Origin: a virus
Strand: one strand, 5' to 3'
DNA length: 45,516 nucleotides
Virus record (IMG/VR): IMGVR_UViG_3300045743_000849
Location: 1 to 45,516 of that record
Positions 1 to 45,516 of the stretch are shown in pieces. The notes below the pieces were generated by a model, which was not told the origin of the DNA, ran no database searches, and saw only the letters and a list, made by a program, of their open reading frames with translations. A program made the position numbers and the translations under genes. Every line of letters starts with the position of its first letter. The stretch's first letter is position 1.

Positions 1-1242
1 TCAGCCGACCAGTTTGAGCGCCGGGGCCTTGGGCTGCTGGTAATCCTGGGGGATGAACTTGCCGTAGACCTTGAAGACCATCTGCACGTCGACGTGGCCG
101 AGCTGCTGGGCGACGTACCAAGGGTTCTGGCCGGCGGTCAGCAGGCTGCTGGCAAAAGTGTGCCGCATCTGGTACGGGTTCCGGTATCGCACGCCAGCGC
201 GTTTGCATAGCGGCTGCCACAGCGTCTTGCGGATCTGCGAATCTGTCTCCCAGCTCTGCCCGGTGCGAGGGTTGTGGAACACGTGCTCGCCGGCCAAGAA
301 TGAAAACTCTTTCTGGCTGGCCAGCGCGGCGAGGGCTTCTGCGCTCAGGTCGACGTCGCGCACGCCGGCTTCCGTCTTCGGCCCTTTCTCGGTCCCCGCG
401 ACCTGGTTGACATCGATGCGGACGGTGTTGCCGACCCAGTCGATCCGATTCCAGCGCAACGCGATCAGCTCGCCTGGCCGCAGGCCGGTAGCCAGGGCAA
501 ACTGGATCTGCGGCCGCTCGTCGCTGCGACAGTGCTTCAGCAGTTCGACGCGCTCGGCCTGGTCGAACGGATCGACCTCGTAGTCGCTGGCCTTGCTGGT
601 CTGCTTCAGCAGTTTGTTCAGGGCGATGCGATCGAAGGGGTTGAAGTCGATCAGCTCGTCGTTCAAAGCGTCTTCAAAGACGGAGCGCAACGGCGTCAGC
701 AAGTTCCGCGCGAACTTGGCGGTGACGCCCATGCCGCTGATCCAGTCGCGCAGCTTGCTGGGGGTCGCATCGCGCAGCGCGACCGTGTCCCATACTTTCA
801 TGCGCTCACTGTTGATCGCCTTGGCATATCCTTCAAGGGTGCTTGGCGACAGGGTCTGATTTTTGACCTGGTGCTCATAGACCTCAAGCTGCTTGTTGAG
901 CAGCTGGCGCAGCATGATGCGGCGGCCGCCAACATCAAACTGCTTGGCGCGTTCGCTGTCCGGGAAATAGTCCGGGTAGTGGAAGGTGCCCTCGGCGATA
1001 CGGCGCTGGATCTCGGCCCTGAGGCCGCTGGCGATATCGACCGACGTCTTGGTGATTGGGCGAGGGGGGAGCAACTCGCGGCACTCAACCCCCTTGAATG
1101 AAAACGCGAGCTGTATGCGCTGCTCGGTCTTGAAGGTGCGGATGCTTACGCCGCGAGGGCAGACGATCTCGCGCTTCGCGGGGCCTGTGCTCGCTGCTGC
1201 TGGACTGGGGCCTGACTCGGCGCCTCGCTGCTTTCCACCCAT
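1..1242 (-). CDS. int: Prophage integrase, tyrosine recombinase with DUF3596-type arm-binding N-terminus
   Basis: Site-specific recombinase that would integrate and excise the prophage. The N-terminus (about residues 20-75) resembles the DUF3596/Arm-DNA-binding family, followed by a SAM-like core-binding domain and a C-terminal catalytic domain. Catalytic landmarks visible are the Arg in ATGLRPGEL, the RHTFASSLL block (its upstream HxxR histidine is replaced by Tyr in YQMR, which is common in this subgroup), the His in QLGHVD and the Tyr in FKVYGKF. I chose the ATG at 1242 because AGAGGTG lies 6 bases upstream; an in-frame start at 1269 also exists. The gene is last in the leftward early operon and overlaps the excisionase-like gene by 97 bases in another frame. 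The stop codon is the first three bases of the window, so attL must lie outside it. Confidence 0.95.
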   Translation of the reverse strand: MGGKQRGAESGPSPAAASTGPAKREIVCPRGVSIRTFKTEQRIQLAFSFKGVECRELLPPRPITKTSVDIASGLRAEIQRRIAEGTFHYPDYFPDSERAKQFDVGGRRIMLRQLLNKQLEVYEHQVKNQTLSPSTLEGYAKAINSERMKVWDTVALRDATPSKLRDWISGMGVTAKFARNLLTPLRSVFEDALNDELIDFNPFDRIALNKLLKQTSKASDYEVDPFDQAERVELLKHCRSDERPQIQFALATGLRPGELIALRWNRIDWVGNTVRIDVNQVAGTEKGPKTEAGVRDVDLSAEALAALASQKEFSFLAGEHVFHNPRTGQSWETDSQIRKTLWQPLCKRAGVRYRNPYQMRHTFASSLLTAGQNPWYVAQQLGHVDVQMVFKVYGKFIPQDYQQPKAPALKLVG

Positions 1243-1424
1243 TTGTTCACCTCTTCGGGATTGATCCACAAATTGCCGTCTGGGCCAATCTTGCAGTGTA
1301 GGCCGTCAAGCCATTGCTGTTTGCGGCGCCTGGCGTGCACGGCGTCGGTAGTGTCGCCGCTGAGCTGGCAGTAGGCTGGCAGCTTGATCCAGCGCATGGG
1401 GCTTTGATAGATTTGAGTGCTCAT
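1146..1424 (-). CDS. xis: Excisionase-like small DNA-binding protein
   Basis: 92-residue basic protein directly upstream of, and overlapping, the integrase. The segment RWIKLPAYCQLSGDTTDAV followed by RRRKQQWLDG and DGNLWINPEEVNKWVE has the layout of excisionase-type winged-helix proteins: an HTH, a basic wing, then a short helix. The C-terminal 25 residues are Ala/Gln/Ser-rich and probably unstructured. Its start (ATG at 1424) overlaps the stop of the ASCH gene, with AAAGG 8 bases upstream, indicating translational coupling. Function is inferred from fold-like features and position next to int. Confidence 0.75.
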   Translation of the reverse strand: MSTQIYQSPMRWIKLPAYCQLSGDTTDAVHARRRKQQWLDGLHCKIGPDGNLWINPEEVNKWVESSEAPSQAPVQQQRAQAPRSARSSALAA

Positions 1425-15509: not shown

Positions 15510-16148
15510 ATGGACGGCTTCGTCACCAAATCACAATTTGCCAAGATCTACGGTTGCTCCAAGCCGTACGTCTCGCAGATGGTGGCGGCGAAGCGCCTGG
15601 TGCTCAGTGATGACGGCAAGCTGGTCAATGTTGATGCCTCACTCAAGCTGCTCGATGTCACCTCCGATCCGTCCAAAGTCGGCGTGCGCGAACGCTGGAA
15701 AGCTCATCGCGAGGGCAGGGAGTTTGAAGGCGTCGCGTCCGATGCCGTCATTGCGGCCCCGGCCCCAGCAACTTCAACTCTGCCCACCGAGCAGCTTGAG
15801 ATTGATGTTTCGCCAGATCCAAAGGCCCAGCCCGCTGAGCCTGTGCGCAATGACTACCGCGACGCCCGCACCCTGCGCGAGCAAGCGCAAGCCCAGATCG
15901 CGCAGCTGGAGCTCGCCAAGGCCATCGGCCGTGTGCTGGATGCCGAGTCAAGCCTGCGCGCAGTTGTTGACGCCCACACCGTGGCTCGAACTGAAATCAT
16001 GATGCTGCGCGACCGCCTCACCCAGCTCGTCGCACCGGTCACTGACCCGCGCAAGGTGTACGACATCATCAGCACCGAGTGCGAACGGGTCTGCGCACAG
16101 ATCCAAAAGCGTGCCCTGGCGATGGCTGAAGAGGCAGTGAAGGCATGA
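15510..16148 (+). CDS. terS: Terminase small subunit (Nu1-like)
   Basis: 212 residues. The N-terminal winged helix (FVTKSQFAKIYGCSKPYVSQ) would bind the packaging site. A flexible Ala/Pro-rich linker lies at 80-115, and a helical C-terminus (ARTLREQAQAQIAQLELAKA; LRDRLTQLVAPVTDPRKVYD) provides oligomerisation and TerL contact, as in lambda gpNu1-type proteins. It overlaps the large subunit by four bases (ATGA). Confidence 0.85.
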   Translation: MDGFVTKSQFAKIYGCSKPYVSQMVAAKRLVLSDDGKLVNVDASLKLLDVTSDPSKVGVRERWKAHREGREFEGVASDAVIAAPAPATSTLPTEQLEIDVSPDPKAQPAEPVRNDYRDARTLREQAQAQIAQLELAKAIGRVLDAESSLRAVVDAHTVARTEIMMLRDRLTQLVAPVTDPRKVYDIISTECERVCAQIQKRALAMAEEAVKA

Positions 16149-18277
16149 ACCTGCGCGACGGTTATCAGGCCGTCATGGAGGCCGTTGCCCGTGGCTGGCA
16201 ACTGCCGCCCGTGCGCACAGTCAGCCAGTGGGCGGATGAAAAACGGGTGCTGCCAACGGAGGGCTCTGCGGAGCCCGGCCAATGGCGCACCTCGCGCAAC
16301 CCCTTGTTGCGCGAACCGATGGACGCGCTGAGCGACCATCACCCCTGCAGCCAGGTCACCACCATGGCCTGCAGCCAGAACGGCAAGAGCGAGATCCTCA
16401 ACAACTGGATCGGCTACACCATCGACGAAGCGCCGTCTTCGATGTTGATGGTGCAGCCAGACGGCACCGCTGCCGAGCGCTACAGCAAGAAGCGCATAGC
16501 GCCGATGATCGAGGCCTGCCAGAGCCTAAAAGACAAAGTCTCCGACTCGGCGGCCCGTGATGGTGGCAACACCATCTTGGACAAAGCCTTCCCTGGCGGA
16601 TTCCTGATGATGGCCGGCGCCGGCTCAGCCAGTGCGCTGGCCAGCACGCCGATCAAGAAAATCGGCCTGGACGAAGTCGACAAGTTCCCGGTCGATATCC
16701 AAGGCCAGGGCAGTCCGGTCAAGCAGGCCGAGCAGCGCCGGGTCACTTACCCTCGCAGCAAGCAGTACAACAGCAGCACGCCTATCAAGATGCCGCTGCC
16801 AGATGAAGACGCCGTTGGCGGCTCCGAAATCTGGCGCATGTATCAAGCCGGCAGCAGGGCACGCTATCACGTGCCTTGCCCCCATTGTGGCCATCTGCAA
16901 GAGCTTGATTTCAGGCACCTGCGCTGGCAGAAGACGATTGACGAGAAGGGCATCAAGAAGCACCTTCCCGAAACCGCTGTCTACATGTGCCAAGGGCCAG
17001 ACTGCGGTGAAGCGATCGAAGAGCACCACAAGCCCGACATGCTGGCCGACGTCCCCATGGGCGGCCAAGCACGCTGGGTGCATGAGCGTCCCTGGATCAC
17101 CGACCATCTCAGCTACCACTGGTCGGCGCTCTACACCCCCATCGGTCTCGGCCGCACTTGGGCGGAGATAGCCAAGGAATGGTTGGCCGCTTGCCGCGAT
17201 CGCAGCAAGCTGGTCACCTTCTGGAACTTGATTCTTGGCTTGCCCTTTGACGATCATGCCGACCGCATGAGCGAGAAGGACCTTGAGGACCAGGCCGAGG
17301 ACTACCCGCTGCGCACCGTCCCGCGCGGCTACTTTATGTTGACAGCGTCCGTCGACACCCAGACCGATCACCTGGACTTCCTGGTGCGAGCCTGGGCCCG
17401 CAACGAACGCAGCATCGTCATCGATCGCGTCAAGGTTTGGAAAGACCCCGAGCATGACGACGCTTGGGCCGAGTTGACCAGGCTGCGCCACCAGACCTTC
17501 ACCAACGCCTTCGGCATCCCCCTGCGGATCGCGATGACGGCGGTGGATACCGGTGGTGACCACACCCAGCGCGTCTACAAGTACTGCCGCCAAATGTCCT
17601 TTGACAGCGTCATCGGCATCAAGGGAAGCAGTTTGAGAAGGCAAGTCATCCTTGGCAAGCCGAGCAAGAAGGAAGCAAAAAACAGCCGTGGCGATATGGC
17701 TAAGAGCGGCCTGGCACTCTGGATGGTCGGCACTGACACCGCCAAAGAGGCCCTGTTCCTTCGCCTGCAAGACTGGCAAAGCCCCGACTGTTTGCAAGAC
17801 CCGACCCGCCGTATGGTGCGCCTCTCCAAGCGCCTGGGCACCGAGTTCTTCCGTGAGCTGACGGCCGAGGTCTACAACGCGCAAACAGGCCTTTTCGACA
17901 AGGTCCGCCAGCGCAATGAAGCCCTTGACCTAATGGTCTACAGCCACGCCGCTGCCTGCCACCCGCAAGTCCGCATAGACAAGCTGGTGGCGGCGGATTG
18001 GGATCACATTGAGCAGTACCTCGAACCAATGAATGGCGACCTGTTCACCTCGGCGACCGACGGTGCGGACTCGGCCGCGCAAACACCGCTGCCAGTGCAA
18101 ACGTCAGCACTGGCCGTGGCTGCTGCTGCCGATGTAGTCGCGACTGAATCCGCTGACGCACCCACACCTGCACCCGCGCCCACCCCGGCGCCCGTGCAGT
18201 CGCCTGCACCCGCACCAGCCCCTGCCGAGCCAGCCCCGCAAAGCTGGATCGGCGACACCGACAACTGGCTCGATTGA
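16145..18277 (+). CDS. terL: Terminase large subunit, GpA family
   Basis: 710 residues, the packaging ATPase/nuclease. Walker A-like ACSQNGKSE (75-83, K81) and Walker B IGLDEVDKF (D176/E177) are visible. A CPHCGH plus CQGPDCGEA pair could bind zinc (about 245-290), and the nuclease domain begins near SVDTQTDHLDFLVRAW with later acidic residues. The last 45 residues are an unusual Ala/Pro/Thr-rich tail ending QSWIGDTDNWLD, the portal-binding end in lambda gpA. Length is slightly above the 640-residue norm because of this tail. Confidence 0.95.
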   Translation: MNLRDGYQAVMEAVARGWQLPPVRTVSQWADEKRVLPTEGSAEPGQWRTSRNPLLREPMDALSDHHPCSQVTTMACSQNGKSEILNNWIGYTIDEAPSSMLMVQPDGTAAERYSKKRIAPMIEACQSLKDKVSDSAARDGGNTILDKAFPGGFLMMAGAGSASALASTPIKKIGLDEVDKFPVDIQGQGSPVKQAEQRRVTYPRSKQYNSSTPIKMPLPDEDAVGGSEIWRMYQAGSRARYHVPCPHCGHLQELDFRHLRWQKTIDEKGIKKHLPETAVYMCQGPDCGEAIEEHHKPDMLADVPMGGQARWVHERPWITDHLSYHWSALYTPIGLGRTWAEIAKEWLAACRDRSKLVTFWNLILGLPFDDHADRMSEKDLEDQAEDYPLRTVPRGYFMLTASVDTQTDHLDFLVRAWARNERSIVIDRVKVWKDPEHDDAWAELTRLRHQTFTNAFGIPLRIAMTAVDTGGDHTQRVYKYCRQMSFDSVIGIKGSSLRRQVILGKPSKKEAKNSRGDMAKSGLALWMVGTDTAKEALFLRLQDWQSPDCLQDPTRRMVRLSKRLGTEFFRELTAEVYNAQTGLFDKVRQRNEALDLMVYSHAAACHPQVRIDKLVAADWDHIEQYLEPMNGDLFTSATDGADSAAQTPLPVQTSALAVAAAADVVATESADAPTPAPAPTPAPVQSPAPAPAPAEPAPQSWIGDTDNWLD

Positions 18278-18560: not shown

Positions 18561-20057
18561 GTGAACTTTATTGACCGCGCGTTCGAGTTGCTGTCCCCCG
18601 CGTCAGCAGTCCGGCGTGAGCAAGCCCGCCTGCAGCTCAGCGTCATCCGCAAGTACGACGCCGCTACCACCGGCCGCCGCACGTCCGGCTGGCAAGCCGG
18701 TGGCGGCAGCGCCAACGCCGAGATCATCCAAGGCCTGGCCCTGGTGCGTAATCGCAGCCGCCAGATGGTTCGCGACAACGAGCACGCCAAGAAGGCAGTG
18801 CACACCCTCGCCACCAAGATCGTCGGCAGCACCGGCATCAACGTCATCCCTGAAGCCAAGGCCGAACGCAACCTCTGGGCGACCTGGTGCGCTGACCAAT
18901 GCGATGCCGATGGCCAACTCGACTTCGCAGGGCTCCAGCGCCTGGCTGCAATGACCTGGAAAGAATCTGGCGAATGCCTTATCCGCCGCCGTTGGCGTAA
19001 GGTTGAAGACGGCCTGGCCGTGCCCATGCAGATCCAGCTCCTGGAACCTGATCACCTCGACCACCTCAAGACCGGCATTGACGGTGCCACTGGCGACATC
19101 ATCATCATGGGCGTCCAGTTCGACGTCCTCGGGCGCCGCAAAGGTTACTGGTTATTCCCTGAGCACCCCGGCGAAGTGGCCATCATCCGCAAGAGCCTGC
19201 AAAGCAAGTTCGTGCCCGCCAGCGAAATCATCCACCTCTACCGTAAAGACCGCATCAGCCAGGTGCGCGGCATGCCCGAGCTAGCCGTCTCCATCATGCG
19301 TCTGCGTGACGTGGCCGGCTACGAGGAGGCCGAGCGGGTGCGCAAGAAGATCGAAGCCTGTTTCACGGCGTTCGTCACCACCGACAACCCCCGTATGTCC
19401 TTGGGTGACCTGACCAAAGAACAGGGCGGCACGGCCACAACTGGCGGCACCCGCACGATCGAGAAAATAAGCCCTGGTCTGATCAAGTACCTCACGCAAG
19501 GCGAGGGCGTCAGCTTCGGCACGCCCGCAGCCATGGGGGGCTATGGCGAGTACATCGCCACCCAAATGCACGCCATCGCAGCCGGTGCAGGCGTCAGCTA
19601 CCACCAGCTCACTGGCGACACCTCGCGCAGCAGCTACACCAGCCACCGCGCCGCCCTGCGCGAGTTTTACGACCTGATTGAGTGCGAGCAATGGCTCACC
19701 TTCATTCCTGGCTTCATCCGCCCGGTGCGCCGCTGGTGGCGCGAGGCCGCGCAGCTCAACGGTGTGCGTATCGGGACCAAGCCCGACCGCATAACCACGC
19801 CGCGCAAGGCCATGGTCGACCCGCTCAAAGACACGCTGGCGGACAAAGAAGAGATACGCGGCGGGCTGAAGAGCTGGAGCGAGGCCATTCGCGAACGCGG
19901 CATGGACCCCGAGACCGTACGGGCCGAGATCAAGAGCGAGCGCGACGCGTTCGCGCTGCTGCAGCTGATCTTTGACACCGATGCCACGGTCACCGATTTG
20001 AAGCTGTCGCCAACTGATGTGCTGGGGCTGGATGCCGGCGCAGCCCCTGCGAACTGA
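18561..20057 (+). CDS. Portal protein, lambda gpB family
   Basis: 498 residues. Typical features are the N-terminal FIDRAFELLSPASAVRREQA, NEHAKKAVHTLATKIVGSTG, LLEPDHLDHLKTG, FVPASEIIHLYRKDRISQVR and the SYHQLTGDTSRSSYTSHRAA segment shared by gpB portals. The C-terminal region (after about 460) is acidic. It forms the dodecameric channel for DNA. The stop is 8 bases before the cassette that separates it from its usual partner, the prohead protease. Confidence 0.95.
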   Translation: MNFIDRAFELLSPASAVRREQARLQLSVIRKYDAATTGRRTSGWQAGGGSANAEIIQGLALVRNRSRQMVRDNEHAKKAVHTLATKIVGSTGINVIPEAKAERNLWATWCADQCDADGQLDFAGLQRLAAMTWKESGECLIRRRWRKVEDGLAVPMQIQLLEPDHLDHLKTGIDGATGDIIIMGVQFDVLGRRKGYWLFPEHPGEVAIIRKSLQSKFVPASEIIHLYRKDRISQVRGMPELAVSIMRLRDVAGYEEAERVRKKIEACFTAFVTTDNPRMSLGDLTKEQGGTATTGGTRTIEKISPGLIKYLTQGEGVSFGTPAAMGGYGEYIATQMHAIAAGAGVSYHQLTGDTSRSSYTSHRAALREFYDLIECEQWLTFIPGFIRPVRRWWREAAQLNGVRIGTKPDRITTPRKAMVDPLKDTLADKEEIRGGLKSWSEAIRERGMDPETVRAEIKSERDAFALLQLIFDTDATVTDLKLSPTDVLGLDAGAAPAN

Positions 20058-20067
20058 AGGAACAAAA

Positions 20068-21588
20068 ATGTTAGTACCAAAACAAAGCGGCATCCGCATC
20101 ACCGCGACAGGAACGGAACCGGACGGTATGACAGCCGCCCAGTTTGCTCAAACTAAAGCCATGGTGTCAGCGGCTTGGAATGACACCATGGTCGGGCTGG
20201 GTGACTCGCTCACTGCCCGATCAAATGTGGCTAGCGGCGGCGCTCAAAACGCACAAGGAACGTCTTTCTTGGCCTGGGCGGCGGCTTTGATGGGCGCGGC
20301 ATTCACGTGGCTCAATGCCGGCATCTCAGGCAACACCACGGCGCAAATGCTGGCCCGGTACGCCACGGACGTTACGCCTCTTTCGGGTCGCTGGCTGCAC
20401 CTATTGGGTGGCGGCAATGATGTGTCAGCGGACGTTTCGGCCTCGGCCATCATCGCAAACCTGACTCAAATCATCGCGCTGGCCAAAGGGGAGGGCCGGC
20501 AGATCGTGCTCGGTACGATTTACCCATTCACCAGTCACACGACGACTGCCCGCCGGGCGGCAATTGCCGGCGTCAATGCTTGGATTCGTGCTCAAGGCGC
20601 GGCCGGAACGGTCATCGTTGCGGACTACTACTCTGCGATGGTTGATCAGGCTGGCGCCATCCGTTCCGGCTTGCTTGTCTCCGATGCAATCCACCCATCG
20701 ATTCAGGGCGCGTCTGTGATGGGGCGCGCGCTTGCATCGGCGCTGACAGCCCGAGTTGGGCCGCGTACTCACATCTTGAGCGCATCGCAGCTTGACGCTG
20801 ATAACGCTTGCCAAAACGGCTGCATGTCCGGGGCGAACGCCAGCGGGGCAAATGGCTGGTCTGTGGCTGGCGGCGTCACCGGAACTGGACCGCGTGGCTG
20901 GTCTGTCACTAGCACTGGCGCAATCGTGGCCGTTGCCAGCAAACAAGCGCGCACCGGTAACGCATCGGCTGCTGATTTTGCCCGCGTGGCGATCACGACC
21001 TCGGGCGTCGATGACAGCTATGTCCGGTATGAGCGAGCCGTCAATTACCGGGTCTGGTCATCGAGCGGCACGGCAAACACCGTGCGCCGGTTCTATGTGC
21101 CTGCGACTGGCGCTCAATACGATGTTCTGGTTGACGGAAGCTTGTCAGCGACTGACCTGACGGCAACATGGCCTACCGACATTGGTGCAACTTTCACGGA
21201 CGGCACGGCCACGCTGATGTGCGTGCAGCCTATCGTTCCCGGCTCGGTGCTGCGCATGGCGGTGGAGTGCAATATCAGCGGCGTCAGCGTCGGCCAAGTG
21301 CACCCCGAAGTCATGGTGTTTTGCCGCAACACAGCGGCGGCTACGGTCTGCAACACGCTGGGACTTGCGACTGCCGGTGTGGCGGTCGATGCCGCTGCGG
21401 CGCTGGTCAGTGAGTCGGGTAGCGGCCTAGTGATCGAAACCAATGATGTGACCGTGCCGGCGACCTTCGACTTGGCCGGTGCAACTTCTGCCGCTGGCCC
21501 TTCCATTGTTGTTCGGCTCAATCTCTACGTTCGTAACAGCGCATTGGCGACCATTGACTGGGGCCGCGCAACTGTGCGGGTCCGCTAA
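20068..21588 (+). CDS. SGNH/GDSL hydrolase with C-terminal beta-rich domain
   Basis: 506 residues. The SGNH blocks are in order: GLGDSLTA with nucleophile S47, NAGISGNTT, LLGGGNDVSA with N117, and SDAIHPS with D206/H209, giving a full catalytic set. The second half (about 260-506) is Thr/Ala/Val-rich and probably a beta-sandwich or carbohydrate-binding module. Such enzymes are esterases or deacetylases and in phages often act on surface polysaccharide. I chose the ATG at 20068 (GAAGGAAC upstream). It lies between portal and protease, an unusual position, so it is most likely a moron or a virion-associated enzyme. No signal peptide is obvious. Confidence 0.88.
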   Translation: MLVPKQSGIRITATGTEPDGMTAAQFAQTKAMVSAAWNDTMVGLGDSLTARSNVASGGAQNAQGTSFLAWAAALMGAAFTWLNAGISGNTTAQMLARYATDVTPLSGRWLHLLGGGNDVSADVSASAIIANLTQIIALAKGEGRQIVLGTIYPFTSHTTTARRAAIAGVNAWIRAQGAAGTVIVADYYSAMVDQAGAIRSGLLVSDAIHPSIQGASVMGRALASALTARVGPRTHILSASQLDADNACQNGCMSGANASGANGWSVAGGVTGTGPRGWSVTSTGAIVAVASKQARTGNASAADFARVAITTSGVDDSYVRYERAVNYRVWSSSGTANTVRRFYVPATGAQYDVLVDGSLSATDLTATWPTDIGATFTDGTATLMCVQPIVPGSVLRMAVECNISGVSVGQVHPEVMVFCRNTAAATVCNTLGLATAGVAVDAAAALVSESGSGLVIETNDVTVPATFDLAGATSAAGPSIVVRLNLYVRNSALATIDWGRATVRVR

Positions 21589-21617
21589 CTTCCAAGCCCC
21601 TCCGCGAGGACCGAACC

Positions 21618-21824
21618 ATGAGCGACCTATTGCGAAAGATTGAAGCCGTCCGCGTCAGGGCTGCCGAAGACGCCGTCATATCAAGCCTTCCTGCTCGCCT
21701 AGTCGAGAACATGCGCAAGGCGGATGCGGCCTTCAAGTCGAGCGGTGGCTGTCCTGGATGCGGCAGCCAAGTCATCGGCGTGCATTACGGCGACTGCCCA
21801 TCGATTCGCAATGACCTTTACTGA
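21618..21824 (+). CDS. Small Cys-containing hypothetical protein
   Basis: 68 residues, not recognised. An N-terminal helix (LLRKIEAVRVRAAEDAVISS) precedes CPGCGSQVIGVHYGDCPS, three cysteines and one histidine that could bind one zinc. Second gene of the cassette, two bases before the next one. Confidence 0.6.
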   Translation: MSDLLRKIEAVRVRAAEDAVISSLPARLVENMRKADAAFKSSGGCPGCGSQVIGVHYGDCPSIRNDLY

Positions 21825-21826
21825 TC

Positions 21827-22207
21827 ATGAGTGAGCTGCAATACACACCCGGCGATTGGTTCCAGGCTGCGACCGTTGACGATCTGGAGCGCTTCTTTGT
21901 GTCGCGCCTTCCTGCGATCCGCGAAGCGGCCCAGGCCCACGGTTACGCCATCGGCTTGCACGGCTCTTGCCGGCGCGACCTGGACCTGATCGCGGCGCCT
22001 TGGCGCGACGGAGCATCGGACGCCGACACCCTGGCTCATGCTGTCGCCCAGGCGGCTTGCGGTATTGATCGGGCCGGCGCCTACGGCTGGGAAAGCAAGC
22101 CCGCTGGGCGCATCGCCACAAGCATCCCGATCTGCTGGCCCGGCTGGCATGGTCAAGACGGCGCCGGTCACATCGACCTGTCGGTGATGCCGACAACCCA
22201 AATCTAA
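21827..22207 (+). CDS. Nucleotidyltransferase-like small protein
   Basis: 126 residues. GLHGSCRRDLDLIAAPW resembles the hG[GS]x(n)DhD core of minimal nucleotidyltransferases: GS followed by DLDL gives two acids. GWHGQDGAGHIDLSVMP near the end provides a third possible acidic residue. Related small phage proteins exist but activity is unproven. Translation is coupled to the preceding gene (2-base gap). Confidence 0.55.
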   Translation: MSELQYTPGDWFQAATVDDLERFFVSRLPAIREAAQAHGYAIGLHGSCRRDLDLIAAPWRDGASDADTLAHAVAQAACGIDRAGAYGWESKPAGRIATSIPICWPGWHGQDGAGHIDLSVMPTTQI

Positions 22208-22231
22208 GCCCCTGCCGGTATCCATAAAACC

Positions 22232-23263
22232 ATGAGCCTGACCACCACGGAGCTTGAAGAGCTGATCCGCCTCGCGCTGTCAGCGCTTCGTGGCCAGGCC
22301 GTTGCGCCGGCTGGTGCTGTTGCTGCGCTCGCTGCGGCTCAGCCTGAGCCAGTGCAGGCCGGGCAGACGTTGGGCGAGTGGCTGGTGACGTACCGGGCGA
22401 TCATCAGTGAGCGCGGGTACAAGGTGTCGACGATCAAAAATCGCGAAGCATCGTTGAAGCACATTGAGGCGATTCTTGGTGGCCGGCCGCTGAAGTTGAT
22501 CAAGCCTCACGAGATCGCGAGCCAGCTCAAGCAGTTCAGCCCGCACACGGCGGGCCGACTGCTCGGGGAGCTGCGCGACGTCTATGTCGAAGCGATCGCC
22601 AATGGCAGTTCAGAGTCCAGCCCGGCCGCGCATGTCAAAGCTCCGCAGGTGCATGGGCTGCGCAAGCGGCTGACGTTGGAGACTTGGCGGTCCATGTTGA
22701 CGCTGTCAAAAGCTGGGCCGCAAAAGTGGGTTCCAGCCATGCTGCTGTTGGCCCTTGCAACTGGGCAGCGGCGGGGTGACCTGGCCAAGATGCGCTTCGA
22801 TGATGTGGTCGGGGGTTGTTTGAGGGTTGAGCAGCAGAAGAAGGCGCGAAAGCCGATTGGGGCCCGAGTCGCGATTCCGCTAACTTTGAAATTGAACGCA
22901 AGTGGAATGACACTTGGTGATGTGGTTGAGTACTGCCGTGGTATCGGCGAGCCCGGCCCTACGCTGCTGCGCAAGTCAGGCGGCGGCCCAATCGAGATGT
23001 CCAGCTTATCGGCACGCTTTCACGAACACATCCTGTCCGTGGCTGGGCCTGACGCATACAAGCAGTACGAATGGCCCAGCTTGCATGAGATCCGCAGTTT
23101 GTCTGCCAGGACATATATCGCCGAGGGCATGACGCCCGTTCAGGTTCAGACACTGCTCGGGCACAAACATTTCGAGATGACAGATCTCTATCTTGATGAC
23201 CGAGGCCTGACCGATGGCGTTTGGAAGACGGTGGATTCAAACGTTACGGCGCAGCCCTCGTAA
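22232..23263 (+). CDS. Internal tyrosine recombinase within the late region
   Basis: 343 residues. A short N-terminal coil is followed by a core-binding domain (LGEWLVTYRAIISERGYK) and a catalytic domain with the full set: R180 in ATGQRRGDL, a Lys-rich beta turn (QQKKARKP), H285xxR288 in LHEIRSL, H311 in LLGHKH and Y320 in TDLYLDD. All residues needed for activity are present, so it should be functional. It is not a second copy of either terminal integrase. It ends 20 bases before a terminator, and it may move or invert the cassette. Confidence 0.9.
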   Translation: MSLTTTELEELIRLALSALRGQAVAPAGAVAALAAAQPEPVQAGQTLGEWLVTYRAIISERGYKVSTIKNREASLKHIEAILGGRPLKLIKPHEIASQLKQFSPHTAGRLLGELRDVYVEAIANGSSESSPAAHVKAPQVHGLRKRLTLETWRSMLTLSKAGPQKWVPAMLLLALATGQRRGDLAKMRFDDVVGGCLRVEQQKKARKPIGARVAIPLTLKLNASGMTLGDVVEYCRGIGEPGPTLLRKSGGGPIEMSSLSARFHEHILSVAGPDAYKQYEWPSLHEIRSLSARTYIAEGMTPVQVQTLLGHKHFEMTDLYLDDRGLTDGVWKTVDSNVTAQPS

Positions 23264-23283
23264 GTCGCACTGACACAGCCCAT

Positions 23284-23307
23284 AGCCCGCCCCGTGCGGG
23301 CTTTCTT
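23284..23307 (+). terminator. Terminator closing the cassette
   Basis: AGCCCGC/GCGGGCT (23284-23302) with a CCCGT loop followed by TTCTT. It lies between the integrase and the capsid gene inside what should be one late transcript, so either antitermination carries polymerase through or it marks the cassette boundary. Confidence 0.8.
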
Positions 23308-23325
23308 AATTCTGGAGTCCTCAAA

Positions 23326-25455
23326 ATGCCCCAAGCATCAACCCCTGTGGTCGAACACCGCAGCATGCCCCTGCAGACCCGTAGCGTGCCTGTCGTCTCC
23401 GTCAACGAGCAGGCCCGCACCTTTGAGTTCGTCTGGACGTCCGGCGCGCGCGTTAAGCGTTTCGACTGGAACACCTGGTCGTACTACCTCGAAGAGCTTT
23501 CGCTCGACCCTGCACACGTTCGTCTCGATCGCCTCAAAAGCGGCGCGCCGTTGCTCAACTCGCACCAGCAGTGGGATCTGTCCAGCGTGCTCGGTGTGCA
23601 TGAAGACGCCTGGCTGGATGGGGCTGAAGGCAGGGCCGTGGCTCGCTTCTCCGATCGCGACGATGAGGTCAACGCCTACTGGCGGGACGTCGTCAACAAG
23701 ATCATCCGCAACACCAGCGTCGGCTACATCGTCCACCGCTACATGAAGCTTGACCCCGAGGTCGAGGGCGGCCTGCCAATCTGGCAAGCGATCGACTGGG
23801 AGCCCTGCGAGAACTCGCTCGTTCCCATCGGCGCCGACCCGCTTGCCGGCGTGCGCACGCTCGGTGCGGGCGATCGCCCTGACACCGAGCAGCTGGGCCG
23901 TCAGGCCGCGCAGCTCGTCGGCGGTCGCAGCTTCCCCTGCGAGTTTGTCACCCGCGCGCTGCCCGCGCCAGGTGCATCCGAAGTTTCCCCCAACCCAGCA
24001 GCAGCCGCTGTTGTTCCACCCACTCCACAGGAGCGTTCCATGCCTCAAGCAAATCAAGACCCAGCGGCTACACCCGTCGCTGCCCCTGCCGCCACTCCGG
24101 TGTCGGCCCCCGCTGCTCGCAGCGAAGCCGACATCCTCGCCGGTGAACGCGAGCGTCAAAACCAGATTCGCGGCGCCGTCGCCGCATTCCGTCGCACTGC
24201 GCACGGCGATCTGGTGACAGATGCCGATGTGACCGGCATGCTCGAGCGCGGCCTCACGCTCGACCAAGCGCGCTCTGAGATGTTCGCCCGCCTGGAGACC
24301 GGCAGCAACAACACCGGCCCCACCCGCAGCGCGGCCGGCCTGCGTACCGAGCAAGACGAGCAAGAGCAGCGCCGCATCGACATGGGCGCGGCTGTTGCCC
24401 ACCGTGCCAATCCAAACGCCAACGCGCTGCCTGAAACCGCCCGCCGCTTCCGGGGCATGACGCTGTTCGAGCTGGCCCGCCGCAGCCTCGAACTGCAAGG
24501 CCAGAACACCGAAGGCCTGGGCCGCAATGAGATCGTCAGCCTCGCCATGGGCAACTCCGACGCCTACGGTTTCCGCTCCCTGCACGGCACCAGTGACTTC
24601 TCGATCGCGCTGGCCAGCACCGTCAACCGCACTTTGCGCCAAAGCTACCAAAGTGCCCCGCAGACCTTCAAGCAGTGGGCCCGCCGTGGCACGCTGAGCG
24701 ACTTCCGCGCCGCGACCCGCGTGGCTGTGGCCGGCAACTTGACGCTGGAGAAGGTCAACGAATTCGGCGAGTTCAAGCGCGGCAAGATGGTTGACTCGGG
24801 CGAAACCATCCAGCTCGGCACTTACGGCAAGGTGGTCGGCGTCACCCGCCAAGCGGTTATCAATGATGACCTCGACTTCCTCTCCCGCCTGCCGGCCATG
24901 TACGGCCGCGCAGCCGCTGACTTCGAGTCGGACATGGTCTATGCCATCTTGAAGAACAACGCCGCGATGAGCGACACCGTCGCGCTGTTCCACGCCACCC
25001 ACGGCAATCTGGGCACGGCCGGCGTCATCGGCGAGGTCACACTCAACGAAGCCCGCAAGGCGATGCGTCTGCAAAAAGACCCATCCGGCAACGGCGCGCC
25101 GCTCAACCTGGTGGCCAAGTACGTGATCGTCGGCGCTACTCGCGAGACCGAAGCGCAGAAGAACTTCCAGGCCGTCGTCATCGCCACGAAGAGCGCCGAC
25201 ACCAACGTCTTCAACAACGCGTATGAAGTCATCGTCGAGCCCCGCCTCGATGCCAGCAACCCGCTGGAATGGTTCATGGCCGCCGATCCGGCACAGATCG
25301 ACACCGTCGAGTACTCCTACCTCGACGGCGACGAAGGTCTCTACACCGAGCAGCGCATGGGCTTCGATGTCGACGGTATCGAAGTCAAGGCCCGCTTGGA
25401 CTTCGCAACCAAGGCGATTGACCATCGCGGCCTGTTCAAGAACCCTGGCGTCTAA
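23326..25455 (+). CDS. Prohead protease / major capsid protein fusion
   Basis: 709 residues. About 1-215 is an HK97/U35-type prohead protease (KRFDWNTWSYYLEELSLDPA, GAPLLNSHQQWDLSSVLGVH, NTSVGYIVHRYM, WEPCENSLVPIGADP). An Ala/Pro linker (235-275) leads into a Mu/HK97-type major capsid domain (after about 380: QSYQSAPQTFKQWARRGTL, FKRGKMVDSGETIQLGTYG, VTRQAVINDDLDFLSRLPAM). The start at 23326 has GGAG upstream. An internal ATG (24040, codon 239) with AGGAG 6-7 bases before it could give a free scaffold-capsid product. Fusions of this type are known in proteobacterial prophages. Confidence 0.92.
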   Translation: MPQASTPVVEHRSMPLQTRSVPVVSVNEQARTFEFVWTSGARVKRFDWNTWSYYLEELSLDPAHVRLDRLKSGAPLLNSHQQWDLSSVLGVHEDAWLDGAEGRAVARFSDRDDEVNAYWRDVVNKIIRNTSVGYIVHRYMKLDPEVEGGLPIWQAIDWEPCENSLVPIGADPLAGVRTLGAGDRPDTEQLGRQAAQLVGGRSFPCEFVTRALPAPGASEVSPNPAAAAVVPPTPQERSMPQANQDPAATPVAAPAATPVSAPAARSEADILAGERERQNQIRGAVAAFRRTAHGDLVTDADVTGMLERGLTLDQARSEMFARLETGSNNTGPTRSAAGLRTEQDEQEQRRIDMGAAVAHRANPNANALPETARRFRGMTLFELARRSLELQGQNTEGLGRNEIVSLAMGNSDAYGFRSLHGTSDFSIALASTVNRTLRQSYQSAPQTFKQWARRGTLSDFRAATRVAVAGNLTLEKVNEFGEFKRGKMVDSGETIQLGTYGKVVGVTRQAVINDDLDFLSRLPAMYGRAAADFESDMVYAILKNNAAMSDTVALFHATHGNLGTAGVIGEVTLNEARKAMRLQKDPSGNGAPLNLVAKYVIVGATRETEAQKNFQAVVIATKSADTNVFNNAYEVIVEPRLDASNPLEWFMAADPAQIDTVEYSYLDGDEGLYTEQRMGFDVDGIEVKARLDFATKAIDHRGLFKNPGV
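24031..24042 (+). promoter_or_regulatory. Internal ribosome-binding site and start in the capsid fusion
   Basis: GGAGCGTTCCATG-type spacing (AGGAG then ATG at 24040), in frame with the fusion at its linker. The first residues after it (MPQANQDPAA) resemble the true N-terminus (MPQASTPVVE), consistent with fusion of two genes that keep the second start. Confidence 0.6.
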
Positions 25456-42506: not shown

Positions 42507-42569
42507 CGTAGCGCTGGCCAAGACCGTCGAACTGCGCTATCGTTCGGCCGGTTTTATCTGAATTTGCCC

Positions 42570-43487
42570 ATGCCCGTAACTGATTCCCCGCTTCGCTACC
42601 CTGGTGGCAAGAGCCAACTCACGCCGTTTGTTGTGGAGTTGTTGCGCACCAATGAATTGTTCGACTGCACTTACGTGGAGCCGTTCGCCGGCGGTGCCGG
42701 CATTGCGTGGACCCTGTTGCTTTCTGGGTATGTGAGCGAGGTGTGGATCAATGACTTCGATCCGGCGATCTTTGCGTTCTGGCACGCGGTGCTGAACGAG
42801 ACCGATGCGCTTTGCGAACGGATCGAGCGAATGCCGGTCAACATTGAAGAATGGCATCGTCAGCGTGCAGTTCAGGCACAGTCGGCCCCCTCGCTGCTAG
42901 ACCTTGGATATTCAACATTTTTCCTGAACCGGACCAATCGTTCAGGGATTCTCAAGGGCGGGGTCATCGGCGGTCTTCGCCAAGATGGCAACTATTTGGT
43001 TGATTGCCGCTTTAATAAGCGCGATCTCATCGCAAAGATCCGACGCATCGCCTTGTATCGGGATCAGGTAACCCTTACCAGACTCGACGCGGAGCAATTC
43101 ATACGCCGCAAGTTCAAGTCGTTGTCGGCACATGCACTCGTGAACGTGGACCCGCCCTACTACCGGCGAGGGCCAGAGCTGTATTGCAGCTTTTACAAAC
43201 ATGATGATCACGCAACGCTTGCGGCTGCTGTGCGAGGGATCAAGCAACCCTGGATGTTGACTTACGACGACACACCAGAGATCCGAGCGATGTACGGCGG
43301 CCTGCCGGCGCATAGCAAGGAATTACTTTACTCGGCTCAGGTTAAGCGCGCTGCCGTGGAGTTGCTGGTTTTGTCGCCAGCGCTTCAGTGGCCGACACAA
43401 CCTGAACAGCGCGTGCGGCGAACGGCTTCGTTGAAGGCGGCTGAGCCGGCGGGGCTGTTTGCCGCTAGTGAACAGGTTGTCATCTAA
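42570..43487 (+). CDS. Second Dam-like adenine methyltransferase
   Basis: 306 residues. RYPGGKSQLTPFVVELLR, EPFAGGAGIAW (F39-G42) and VDPPYYRRG (D194) give the full D12-class signature. Sequence differs clearly from the methyltransferase at 40248, so this is not a duplication. The ATG at 42570 was preferred over TTG at 42564. With the ParB-like gene it forms a possible two-gene accessory unit. Confidence 0.88.
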   Translation: MPVTDSPLRYPGGKSQLTPFVVELLRTNELFDCTYVEPFAGGAGIAWTLLLSGYVSEVWINDFDPAIFAFWHAVLNETDALCERIERMPVNIEEWHRQRAVQAQSAPSLLDLGYSTFFLNRTNRSGILKGGVIGGLRQDGNYLVDCRFNKRDLIAKIRRIALYRDQVTLTRLDAEQFIRRKFKSLSAHALVNVDPPYYRRGPELYCSFYKHDDHATLAAAVRGIKQPWMLTYDDTPEIRAMYGGLPAHSKELLYSAQVKRAAVELLVLSPALQWPTQPEQRVRRTASLKAAEPAGLFAASEQVVI

Positions 43488-43786: not shown

Positions 43787-43860
43787 GTCAGGATTTTGGC
43801 GGGTTCTTGGATCGGAGGGGGGTGCAGCTGTGACACGGTCTGCCCGGTCTGAGTTGCGGA

Positions 43861-43898
43861 CGGCGGTTCAATTCCAAAAATGGGAATTGAATTCGCCG
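43861..43898. repeat. Inverted repeat sharing the tRNA T-arm word
   Basis: CGGCGGTTCAATTCC (43861-43875) faces GGAATTGAATTCGCCG (43883-43898) with a 7-base loop. The GGTTCAATTCC part also occurs in the T-arm of the tRNA fragment at 44020-44030, so it may be related to attachment or be a coincidence of a stable hairpin. Confidence 0.5.
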
Positions 43899-43960
43899 AC
43901 ATGTGGAGCAGAATGCGGCCATTCAAGGCTTCTAGCTACTTGGGACTAGCCGTCTTGATT

Positions 43961-43982
43961 GATTCGCACGTGATTCGCACGT
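43961..43982. repeat. Tandem 11-base direct repeat near attachment site
   Basis: GATTCGCACGT occurs twice in tandem (43961-43971, 43972-43982), 36 bases before the tRNA 3' fragment. The spacing fits integrase arm-type sites of the prophage, but no protein evidence supports this. Confidence 0.5.
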
Positions 43983-44017
43983 ACGGTGCAAAAATGGCGT
44001 ATTTGCGCGGTTCGTCT

Positions 44018-44044
44018 AGGGTTCAATTCCCCCCGGCTCCACCA
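44018..44044 (+). other. 3' end of a tRNA-Ala or tmRNA gene, probable attachment core
   Basis: The T-loop TTCAATT and the acceptor end CGGCTCCACCA are intact, ending in an encoded CCA. The CTCC before ACCA implies the G3-U70 pair of tRNA-Ala or tmRNA. The upstream 50 bases do not fold as the rest of a tRNA: the needed GGAGCCG or GGGGCCG 5' strand is missing and the T-stem has mismatches. So only the end is present, as expected at an att site. Position between prophage end and an outward-reading integrase supports the call. Confidence 0.7.
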
Positions 44045-44075
44045 ATTTAGCATCCCAGGGGATGCAAGAAAGTAG

Positions 44076-44112
44076 AAATGCCCAAGTAAATCAACGACTT
44101 GGGCATTTTTTT
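44076..44112 (+). terminator. Terminator after the tRNA/tmRNA remnant
   Basis: AAATGCCCAAGT (44076-44087) pairs perfectly with ACTTGGGCATTT (44097-44108) and is followed by more T. A strong hairpin just downstream of the tRNA end. A smaller CATCCC/GGGATG hairpin lies at about 44051-44064. Confidence 0.85.
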
Positions 44113-44154
44113 CGTCCAAAAATGTTCAAGGAGATGTGGGGGCATCTCTCGCCA

Positions 44155-44216
44155 TTGGGGGCAACTTTGGGGGCAAGTCTAAAATTGGGGAAAACTGGCT
44201 TTGCAGTTGCCCCCAA
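44155..44216. repeat. 12-base repeats upstream of the right integrase
   Basis: TTGGGGGCAACT (44155-44166) and TTGGGGGCAAGT (44167-44178) are tandem, and AGTTGCCCCCAA (44205-44216) is the exact inverted copy of the first. They lie 16-78 bases before the integrase start and are candidate arm sites or an autoregulatory operator. Confidence 0.65.
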
Positions 44217-44232
44217 TTGAAGGATTTCTCCC

Positions 44233-45516
44233 ATGGCAAACGACAAACTGAGCGACATGCAATTGCGCAAGGCGAAGCCTGGTGAAAAGCCCATAAAGCT
44301 GGCGGATGGGGGCGGGCTTTATCTCGAAGTGCAACCCTCTGGGTCCAAATATTGGCGTTTGAAATACCGCATCGCCGGCGTCGAAAAGCGGCTGAGCTTG
44401 GGGGTCTATCCGGCGATTGGCCTGAAGGAAGCCAGGAGCAAGGCCGAAGACGCGCGCAAGCTGGTTCGGGATGGCACGGACCCGAGTGAGCATCGACAGA
44501 CCCTGAAGGCAGAAATCCTGAACAAGCGTGAGGTCGATCGACTGGCCGACGAGGGTTTGCCTCCGTTGGGGTCTTTTGAAAATGTTGCCAGAGACTGGCT
44601 CAAGACCGTTCATGAGGTGAAAGTCAGCCCTGGCCACGCGCAGCGAACGCAGATCCGGCTGGAGCAAGACGCCTTCCCATGGATTGGCAGGCGGCCGATA
44701 GGCGAGATTGAGGCGCCCGAGCTATTGTTGATGCTGCGCCGGATAGAAAGTCGCGGCGCTATCGAAACAGCCCATCGGGTCAAGGACGCCTGCGGCCAAG
44801 TCTTCCGGTATGGCGTAGCGACCGGCGCTTGCCAGCGTAACCCGGCGGCAGATCTGCGTGATGCGATGCGGCCAGTGCAGACGCGCCATCATGCGGCAAT
44901 CACCGACCCCGTCCTGGTTAGCAAGCTTTTGTGCGATATCCGAGCCTACCAAGGCCATCCGGTGACTCGCACCGCCTTGGAGTTGTCTGCGCTGCTCTTG
45001 CTTCGGCCGGGAGAATTGCGCAATATGGAATGGGCTTGGGTTGATCTCCCTGCTGGCATGGTGACACTCCCACCCGAAGTGATGAAACGCAAGAAGGCAG
45101 ACAAGGCAGACGGTCCGCCACATCTGGTGCCGCTGGCATCGCAGGCCGCTGATTTACTGTGTGAATTGCAGCGCCTTACCGGCGGAGGTCGCTATGTGTT
45201 TCCGGCTCTGACGACCAGTCAGCGCTGCATGAGCGAGAACACCGTGCGCAGTGCATTGCGGCGCTTAGGCTACGGCAATGACGACATGACGGCGCATGGA
45301 TTCAGGGCAACGGCCAGAACAATGATCGCCGAACGTTTGAGTATTGAGCCTCAGGTCATTGAAGCGCAGTTGGCGCATGCCGTTCCAGACGCGCTTGGGC
45401 GGGCCTATAACCGCACGCAGTACCTAGAGCAGCGCAAAACCATGATGCAGGCTTGGGGCAATTATCTGGATCAACTCTGGGCTGGCGCGCAAGCAGGAAA
45501 TCTGAGGGTTGTTTGA
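44233..45516 (+). CDS. int: P4-type integrase with DUF4102 N-terminal arm-binding domain
   Basis: 427 residues. An N-terminal DUF4102-like domain (LADGGGLYLEVQPSGSKYWR, KRLSLGVYPAIGLKEARSKA) is followed by a core-binding domain and a catalytic domain with R in LRPGELRNMEW, HGFR in MTAHGFRATA, H in QLAHAVPD and Y in RAYNRTQYLE. This class (CP4-57, P4 relatives) inserts in tRNA or tmRNA 3' ends and lies next to the att site reading away from it, exactly as here. It likely belongs to a second element extending to the right of the window. Confidence 0.93.
   Translation: MANDKLSDMQLRKAKPGEKPIKLADGGGLYLEVQPSGSKYWRLKYRIAGVEKRLSLGVYPAIGLKEARSKAEDARKLVRDGTDPSEHRQTLKAEILNKREVDRLADEGLPPLGSFENVARDWLKTVHEVKVSPGHAQRTQIRLEQDAFPWIGRRPIGEIEAPELLLMLRRIESRGAIETAHRVKDACGQVFRYGVATGACQRNPAADLRDAMRPVQTRHHAAITDPVLVSKLLCDIRAYQGHPVTRTALELSALLLLRPGELRNMEWAWVDLPAGMVTLPPEVMKRKKADKADGPPHLVPLASQAADLLCELQRLTGGGRYVFPALTTSQRCMSENTVRSALRRLGYGNDDMTAHGFRATARTMIAERLSIEPQVIEAQLAHAVPDALGRAYNRTQYLEQRKTMMQAWGNYLDQLWAGAQAGNLRVV

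What the first reader, a model, noticed from the sequence alone, without database searches (positions are those of the whole stretch)
43861..44233. Junction of two integrative elements at a tRNA-Ala/tmRNA 3' end
A tRNA or tmRNA 3' fragment (44018-44044), direct and inverted repeats on both sides, and an outward-reading P4-type integrase directly follow the prophage's last gene. The simplest reading is a tandem array: the prophage ends here and a second island starts, sharing the same attachment core.
Basis: partly seen in the sequence, partly recalled or inferred. Interest (0 to 1): 0.6.

Follow-up and report, generated by a model that had tools for sequence, protein, structure and literature searches.

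The report
Prophage and island share tmRNA site
The end of a bacterial prophage abuts the start of a second integrating element, and both were inserted at the 3' end of the same host gene (ssrA, for tmRNA); such tandem insertions are already known, so this is an ordinary but clear example.

Summary
Window 44019-44044 is an exact 26-nt 3' end of a betaproteobacterial-type tmRNA gene (ssrA), not tRNA-Ala. It is the only copy in the window (0 expected by chance). Left of it lies an 11-bp-spaced pair TCGCACGnnnnTCGCACG (43964), unique in the window and 55 nt from the core. The same pair at the same distance marks the attR of a Methylibium ssrA element whose integrase is ~70% identical to the window's left integrase, and of viral contig L030 (63%). 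The core is therefore most likely the prophage's right attachment site. Right of it lie a hairpin, different repeats (TTGGGGGCAA) and a P4-type integrase. In 20 of its 30 fetched genome relatives (about 50-56% identical) an intact ssrA lies just upstream, usually 165-215 bp away on the same strand. The junction is thus a hybrid: prophage attR fused to the attL of a second element, one shared core. The predicted intact ssrA (left of 1) and third core (right of 45516) cannot be seen, because the record is a 45.5-kb provirus cut at both integrase stop codons. Tandem islands at tmRNA genes are a known kind.

The parts
1..1269 (-). INT_L: prophage tyrosine integrase with Arm-DNA-bind_2 arm domain; reads out of the left end, predicted convergent with an intact ssrA lying left of position 1
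   Evidence: Pfam PF12167 and PF00589; Methylibium relative ~70% identical lies next to and convergent with intact ssrA; groups with ssrA-inserted elements
16145..18277 (+). terminase large subunit of the prophage
   Evidence: phrog_15, E 1.7e-208
23221..25455 (+). protease and major capsid fusion protein of the prophage (true start probably the ATG near 23326)
   Evidence: phrog_4523, PF25209; similar to Rhodobacter phage RcOceanus gp8
42564..43487 (+). D12-class N6-adenine DNA methyltransferase, last large gene of the prophage
   Evidence: PF02086
43484..43786 (-). 100-aa ORF of unknown function at the prophage's right end
   Evidence: no Pfam or PHROGs match; may not be a gene
43960..43981 (+). 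P'-arm-like tandem pair TGATTCGCACG/TGATTCGCACG of the prophage, 55 nt left of the core
   Evidence: same pair at the same distance in Methylibium attR and L030
44019..44044 (+). shared attachment core: 3' end of ssrA (tmRNA); prophage attR and attL of the second element
   Evidence: 24-nt end identical in intact Achromobacter ssrA
44076..44108 (+). hairpin followed by a T run (terminator-like), probably carried by the second element
   Evidence: similar hairpins upstream of relatives' integrases in L003 and L006
44137..44217 (+). arm-type-like repeats of the second element: TGGGGGCA at 44137, 44156 and 44168, inverted copy 44205-44217
   Evidence: GGGGGCAT repeats at the matching place in ssrA-inserted relative L067
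44233..45516 (+). INT_R: P4-type tyrosine integrase of the second element (Arm-DNA-bind_3)
   Evidence: 20 of 30 fetched genome relatives flanked by intact ssrA

Best explanation
The junction is a hybrid attachment site in a tandem array at the host's ssrA (tmRNA) gene. A temperate tailed phage (about 44 kb, INT_L at its left end) integrated at the 3' end of ssrA. Its integrase recombined attP with the ssrA 3' end, restored an intact ssrA on the left (inferred, outside the record) and left the displaced 26-nt 3' end at 44019-44044 as attR, with its own P' arm sites at 43960-43981. A second element with a P4-type integrase uses the same 26-nt core as its attL, with its own arm sites upstream of the integrase gene at 44137-44217, and extends to the right beyond the record. 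The array would read: intact ssrA, prophage, core, P4-type element, core. Shown: the core, both sets of repeats, both integrases, and matching anatomy in relatives. Inferred: that the repeats are integrase arm sites, intact ssrA on the left, third core on the right, and separate excision of each element. The order of arrival cannot be read from this junction.
For: The core is exact and unique. INT_L relatives found by protein similarity alone, L008, L010, L011, L012 and L047, all have an ssrA 3' end near the integrase. In Methylibium the integrase lies convergent to intact ssrA (43854-44225), and the element ends 4.6 kb on at a second core copy inside a direct repeat of about 100 bp. Its attR carries TCGCACGnnnnTCGCACG 55 nt before the core, as do the window (43964, core 44019) and L030 (12966, core 13022); this pair occurs once in the window with 0.0 expected. 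INT_R: in 20 of 30 fetched genome relatives an intact tmRNA lies upstream on the same strand, usually 165-215 bp away (189 bp in the window); most others have a tRNA there. L006 (62-63% identical) has the ssrA 3' portion (95 bits) before its integrase. In the INT_L tree the window groups with the Methylibium ssrA integrase.
Against: Neither outer junction can be seen, because the record ends at both integrase stop codons. None of the sequences examined showed a three-core array with both integrase types, and none of the listed counts among 399 genomes of the order reached three exact cores. Nothing right of the INT_R gene is known, so the second element could be a remnant. Several INT_L relatives have the opposite polarity of integrase to core (L008, L011, L047), so only the Methylibium-like arrangement predicts the window's geometry. 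The Methylibium copy is degenerate (two stops in the integrase frame).
Confidence: 0.85

Rival explanations
1. INT_R belongs to the same prophage or to a composite that moves as one unit; the tmRNA fragment is an internal relic.
For: P4-type integrases also occur in complete tailed phages, e.g. Stenotrophomonas phage S1, 47% identical; no independent cargo of the second element is visible in the record.
Against: The fragment carries INT_L-type arm sites on its left at the exact 55-nt distance of a true attR, and INT_R in relatives sits just downstream of intact ssrA.
Confidence: 0.06
2. Assembly chimera: two strains, one with the prophage and one with the P4-type element at ssrA, were joined through the shared 26-nt core.
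For: The core is precisely the sequence shared by both elements' junctions; the record comes from a virus-contig collection, where such joins can occur.
Against: 26 nt is shorter than most assembly k-mers and read overlaps (general knowledge); tandem islands at tRNA/tmRNA genes are documented (Islander).
Confidence: 0.07
3. The match is a tRNA-Ala 3' end.
For: tRNA and tmRNA share the T arm and CCA end.
Against: 0 mismatches to ssrA over 24 nt but 4 of 25 to the tRNA-Ala(GGC) end in L057; relatives of both integrases sit at ssrA.
Confidence: 0.02

Closest known systems
Tandem genomic islands at tRNA/tmRNA genes (Islander database, PMC4383910; Williams 2003 'Traffic at the tmRNA gene' is cited there and was not read)
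   Same: Each member has its own integrase and its own tDNA fragment; tmRNA is the most enriched target; 125 tandems of two or more among 3919 islands
   Different: Here only the middle junction is in the record; the pair is a tailed prophage plus a P4-type-integrase element
Methylibium sp. Root1272 ssrA element (NZ_LMDY01000001, 4.6 kb)
   Same: Integrase ~70% identical, convergent with ssrA, same arm pair and spacing at attR
   Different: Small, degenerate, single element; carries a reverse-transcriptase-like ORF, not a tailed phage
P4-type ssrA islands (E. coli CP4-57 type, from general knowledge; here L067, L075, L006)
   Same: ssrA 3' end, then about 190 bp with repeats, then a P4-type integrase on the same strand
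   Different: Here the body of ssrA is absent and a prophage's attR stands in its place

Membership tests
tandem islands at a tmRNA gene (Islander definition) | each member has its own integrase gene | tested here: met
   INT_L 1-1269 and INT_R 44233-45516
tandem islands at a tmRNA gene (Islander definition) | each member has its own displaced tDNA fragment, plus an intact tDNA at one end | tested here: inconclusive
   one fragment at 44019-44044; intact gene and second fragment would lie outside the record
tandem islands at a tmRNA gene (Islander definition) | fragment orientation consistent with the intact gene | tested here: inconclusive
   fragment on +; by comparison with Methylibium the intact gene should be on + left of 1; not visible
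INT_L-type (Arm-DNA-bind_2) ssrA integrase | domain content and ssrA-inserted sister elements | tested here: met
P4-type ssrA integrase | Arm-DNA-bind_3 and catalytic domain, placed just downstream of the ssrA 3' end on the same strand | tested here: met
active integrative elements | excised circles, attP and empty attB | not testable with these tools
   needs reads or PCR

The most novel reading that the evidence does not exclude
The P4-type element is a satellite that depends on the adjacent prophage, and the shared hybrid att core, with arm sites of two unrelated integrases on opposite sides, lets one integrase excise both as one circle and so links satellite and helper.
Probability: 0.07. 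Interest if true: 0.5.

Novelty: new member of a known kind. Interest (0 to 1): 0.2.

Why it matters
It fixes the likely right end of this prophage at the core 44019-44044, shows that the last 1.5 kb of the provirus record, including one of its integrases, most likely belongs to another element, and adds an ssrA tandem in which two unrelated integrase families use one core. Such junctions are a trap for automatic provirus calling, because geNomad extends provirus edges to the nearest integrase (PMC11324519).

Tried and rejected
tRNA-Ala identity: rejected on 4 mismatches and on the targets of relatives. Polarity worry (the core is + while INT_L is -, unlike L008 and L011): resolved by Methylibium, L053 and L065, where the integrase is convergent with ssrA. 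Phage collection DNA search with the junction: no match. G187, with both integrase types 27 kb apart, was examined as a possible array precedent; only one ssrA-like core was found there. In the pattern-matched viral contigs that carry an INT_L-type integrase beside the core, no INT_R-type integrase was found by tblastn. The repeat GGTTCAATTCC at 43865-43875 matches 11 nt of the core, but lies in an inverted repeat inside the prophage; treated as unexplained or chance. A papers search for ssrA tandem arrays gave no direct hit.

Full report
What was checked. The window is a virus record of 45,516 bases with no further flanks. It begins at the stop codon of one integrase (1-1269, -) and ends at the stop codon of another (44233-45516, +). 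geNomad, as published, extends provirus edges to neighbouring integrases within 10 kb (PMC11324519). That IMG/VR uses geNomad is my own knowledge; if so, both ends are explained and the right-hand integrase need not belong to the prophage.

The core. GGGTTCAATTCCCCCCGGCTCCACCA at 44019-44044 is the only match with up to 3 mismatches in the window; shuffles give 0. The 24-nt GTTCAATTCCCCCCGGCTCCACCA is exactly the end of the intact ssrA of Achromobacter denitrificans (G002:C20, ARAGORN tmRNA). A tRNA-Ala(GGC) end differs at 4 of 25 positions (L057). No upstream tmRNA motif tested is in the last 2.5 kb of the window in the expected place, so this is a displaced 3' fragment.

The left side belongs to the prophage. 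Relatives of INT_L found by protein similarity, not by the core, lie beside ssrA 3' ends: L008, L010 (Methylibium), L011 (Achromobacter), L012 and L047. More distant relatives use other sites, several of them tRNA genes. In Methylibium the ~70%-identical integrase gene (with two internal stops) is convergent with intact ssrA at 43854-44225, and a second core copy, with one base missing, closes a 4.6-kb element at 48821; the two ends share a direct repeat of about 100 bp. The pair TCGCACGnnnnTCGCACG occurs at both ends of that element, once in the window (43964) and once in L030 (12966), and lies 55-56 nt before the core at the Methylibium attR, in the window and in L030; Markov-shuffled windows give 0.0. 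I read these as integrase arm sites, so 44019-44044 is the attR of the prophage with INT_L. In the tree the window groups with the Methylibium integrase and L030, inside a clade whose members with a known target are all at ssrA; many of those members were fetched by the core pattern, so only the protein-found ones are unbiased.

The right side belongs to a second element. INT_R is a P4-type integrase. Of 30 relatives fetched from genomes of the same order (about 50-56% identical), 20 have an intact tmRNA upstream on the same strand, usually with 165-215 bp between tmRNA end and integrase (two have about 600); most others have a tRNA there. The window has 189 bp. L006, 62-63% identical, has the ssrA 3' portion (95 bits) before its integrase. 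Between core and INT_R lie a hairpin (-18.3 kcal/mol, z -5.2) and repeats TGGGGGCA three times with an inverted copy, laid out as in L067. These differ from the prophage's arm pair, which fits two integrases using one core from opposite sides.

What is not shown. Intact ssrA left of 1, a third core right of 45516, the cargo of the second element, order of arrival, and activity. Among 399 genomes of the order, 243 had an exact core of the searched form; none of the listed counts exceeded two, so arrays of three cores look uncommon there, although that pattern misses diverged copies.

Comparison. Islander (PMC4383910) defines tandem arrays by an integrase and a tDNA fragment for each member, reports tmRNA as the most enriched target, and counts 125 tandems of two or more among 3919 islands. 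This junction fits that kind. It is a new member of a known kind and of modest interest.

Noticed in passing
window 20036-23263: A third tyrosine recombinase gene (22232-23263) with a GDSL-lipase gene and a small ORF sits between portal and capsid genes, which are directly adjacent in phages LPPA33 and RcOceanus. An 11-nt repeat CGGCGCAGCCC lies at the 3' ends of the portal and recombinase genes (20036, 23247), within chance for the area searched. It resembles integrase elements embedded in late genes (HE-PICI, PMC10111431).
   Followed up: partly
L103-L123: 21 viral contigs carry relatives of this internal recombinase (31-76% identical), in other gene contexts: near RecE/RecT-like genes, next to a second integrase, near portal genes.
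   Followed up: partly
L097 351-5370 (Methylibium G001:C1 43850-48870): The 4.6-kb ssrA element carries a 493-aa ORF with a reverse-transcriptase-like FMDD motif (my reading of the sequence, not tested by HMM); L030, also with an INT_L-type integrase, carries an Rfam RT-15 RNA (178 bits).
   Followed up: no
L008, L011, L047 versus L010, L053, L065: Within the INT_L family the integrase points in the direction of ssrA in some elements and against it in others, so integrase polarity relative to the attachment core has flipped.
   Followed up: partly
L014 about 650-1000 (reverse strand), L025 2560-3000: The ssrA core is flanked on both sides by the same arm-like repeats, as expected of attP in a circular phage or of a head-to-tail pair.
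   Followed up: no
window 43865-43891: GGTTCAATTCC matches 11 nt of the core and forms an inverted repeat with GGAATTGAA; purpose unknown.
   Followed up: no
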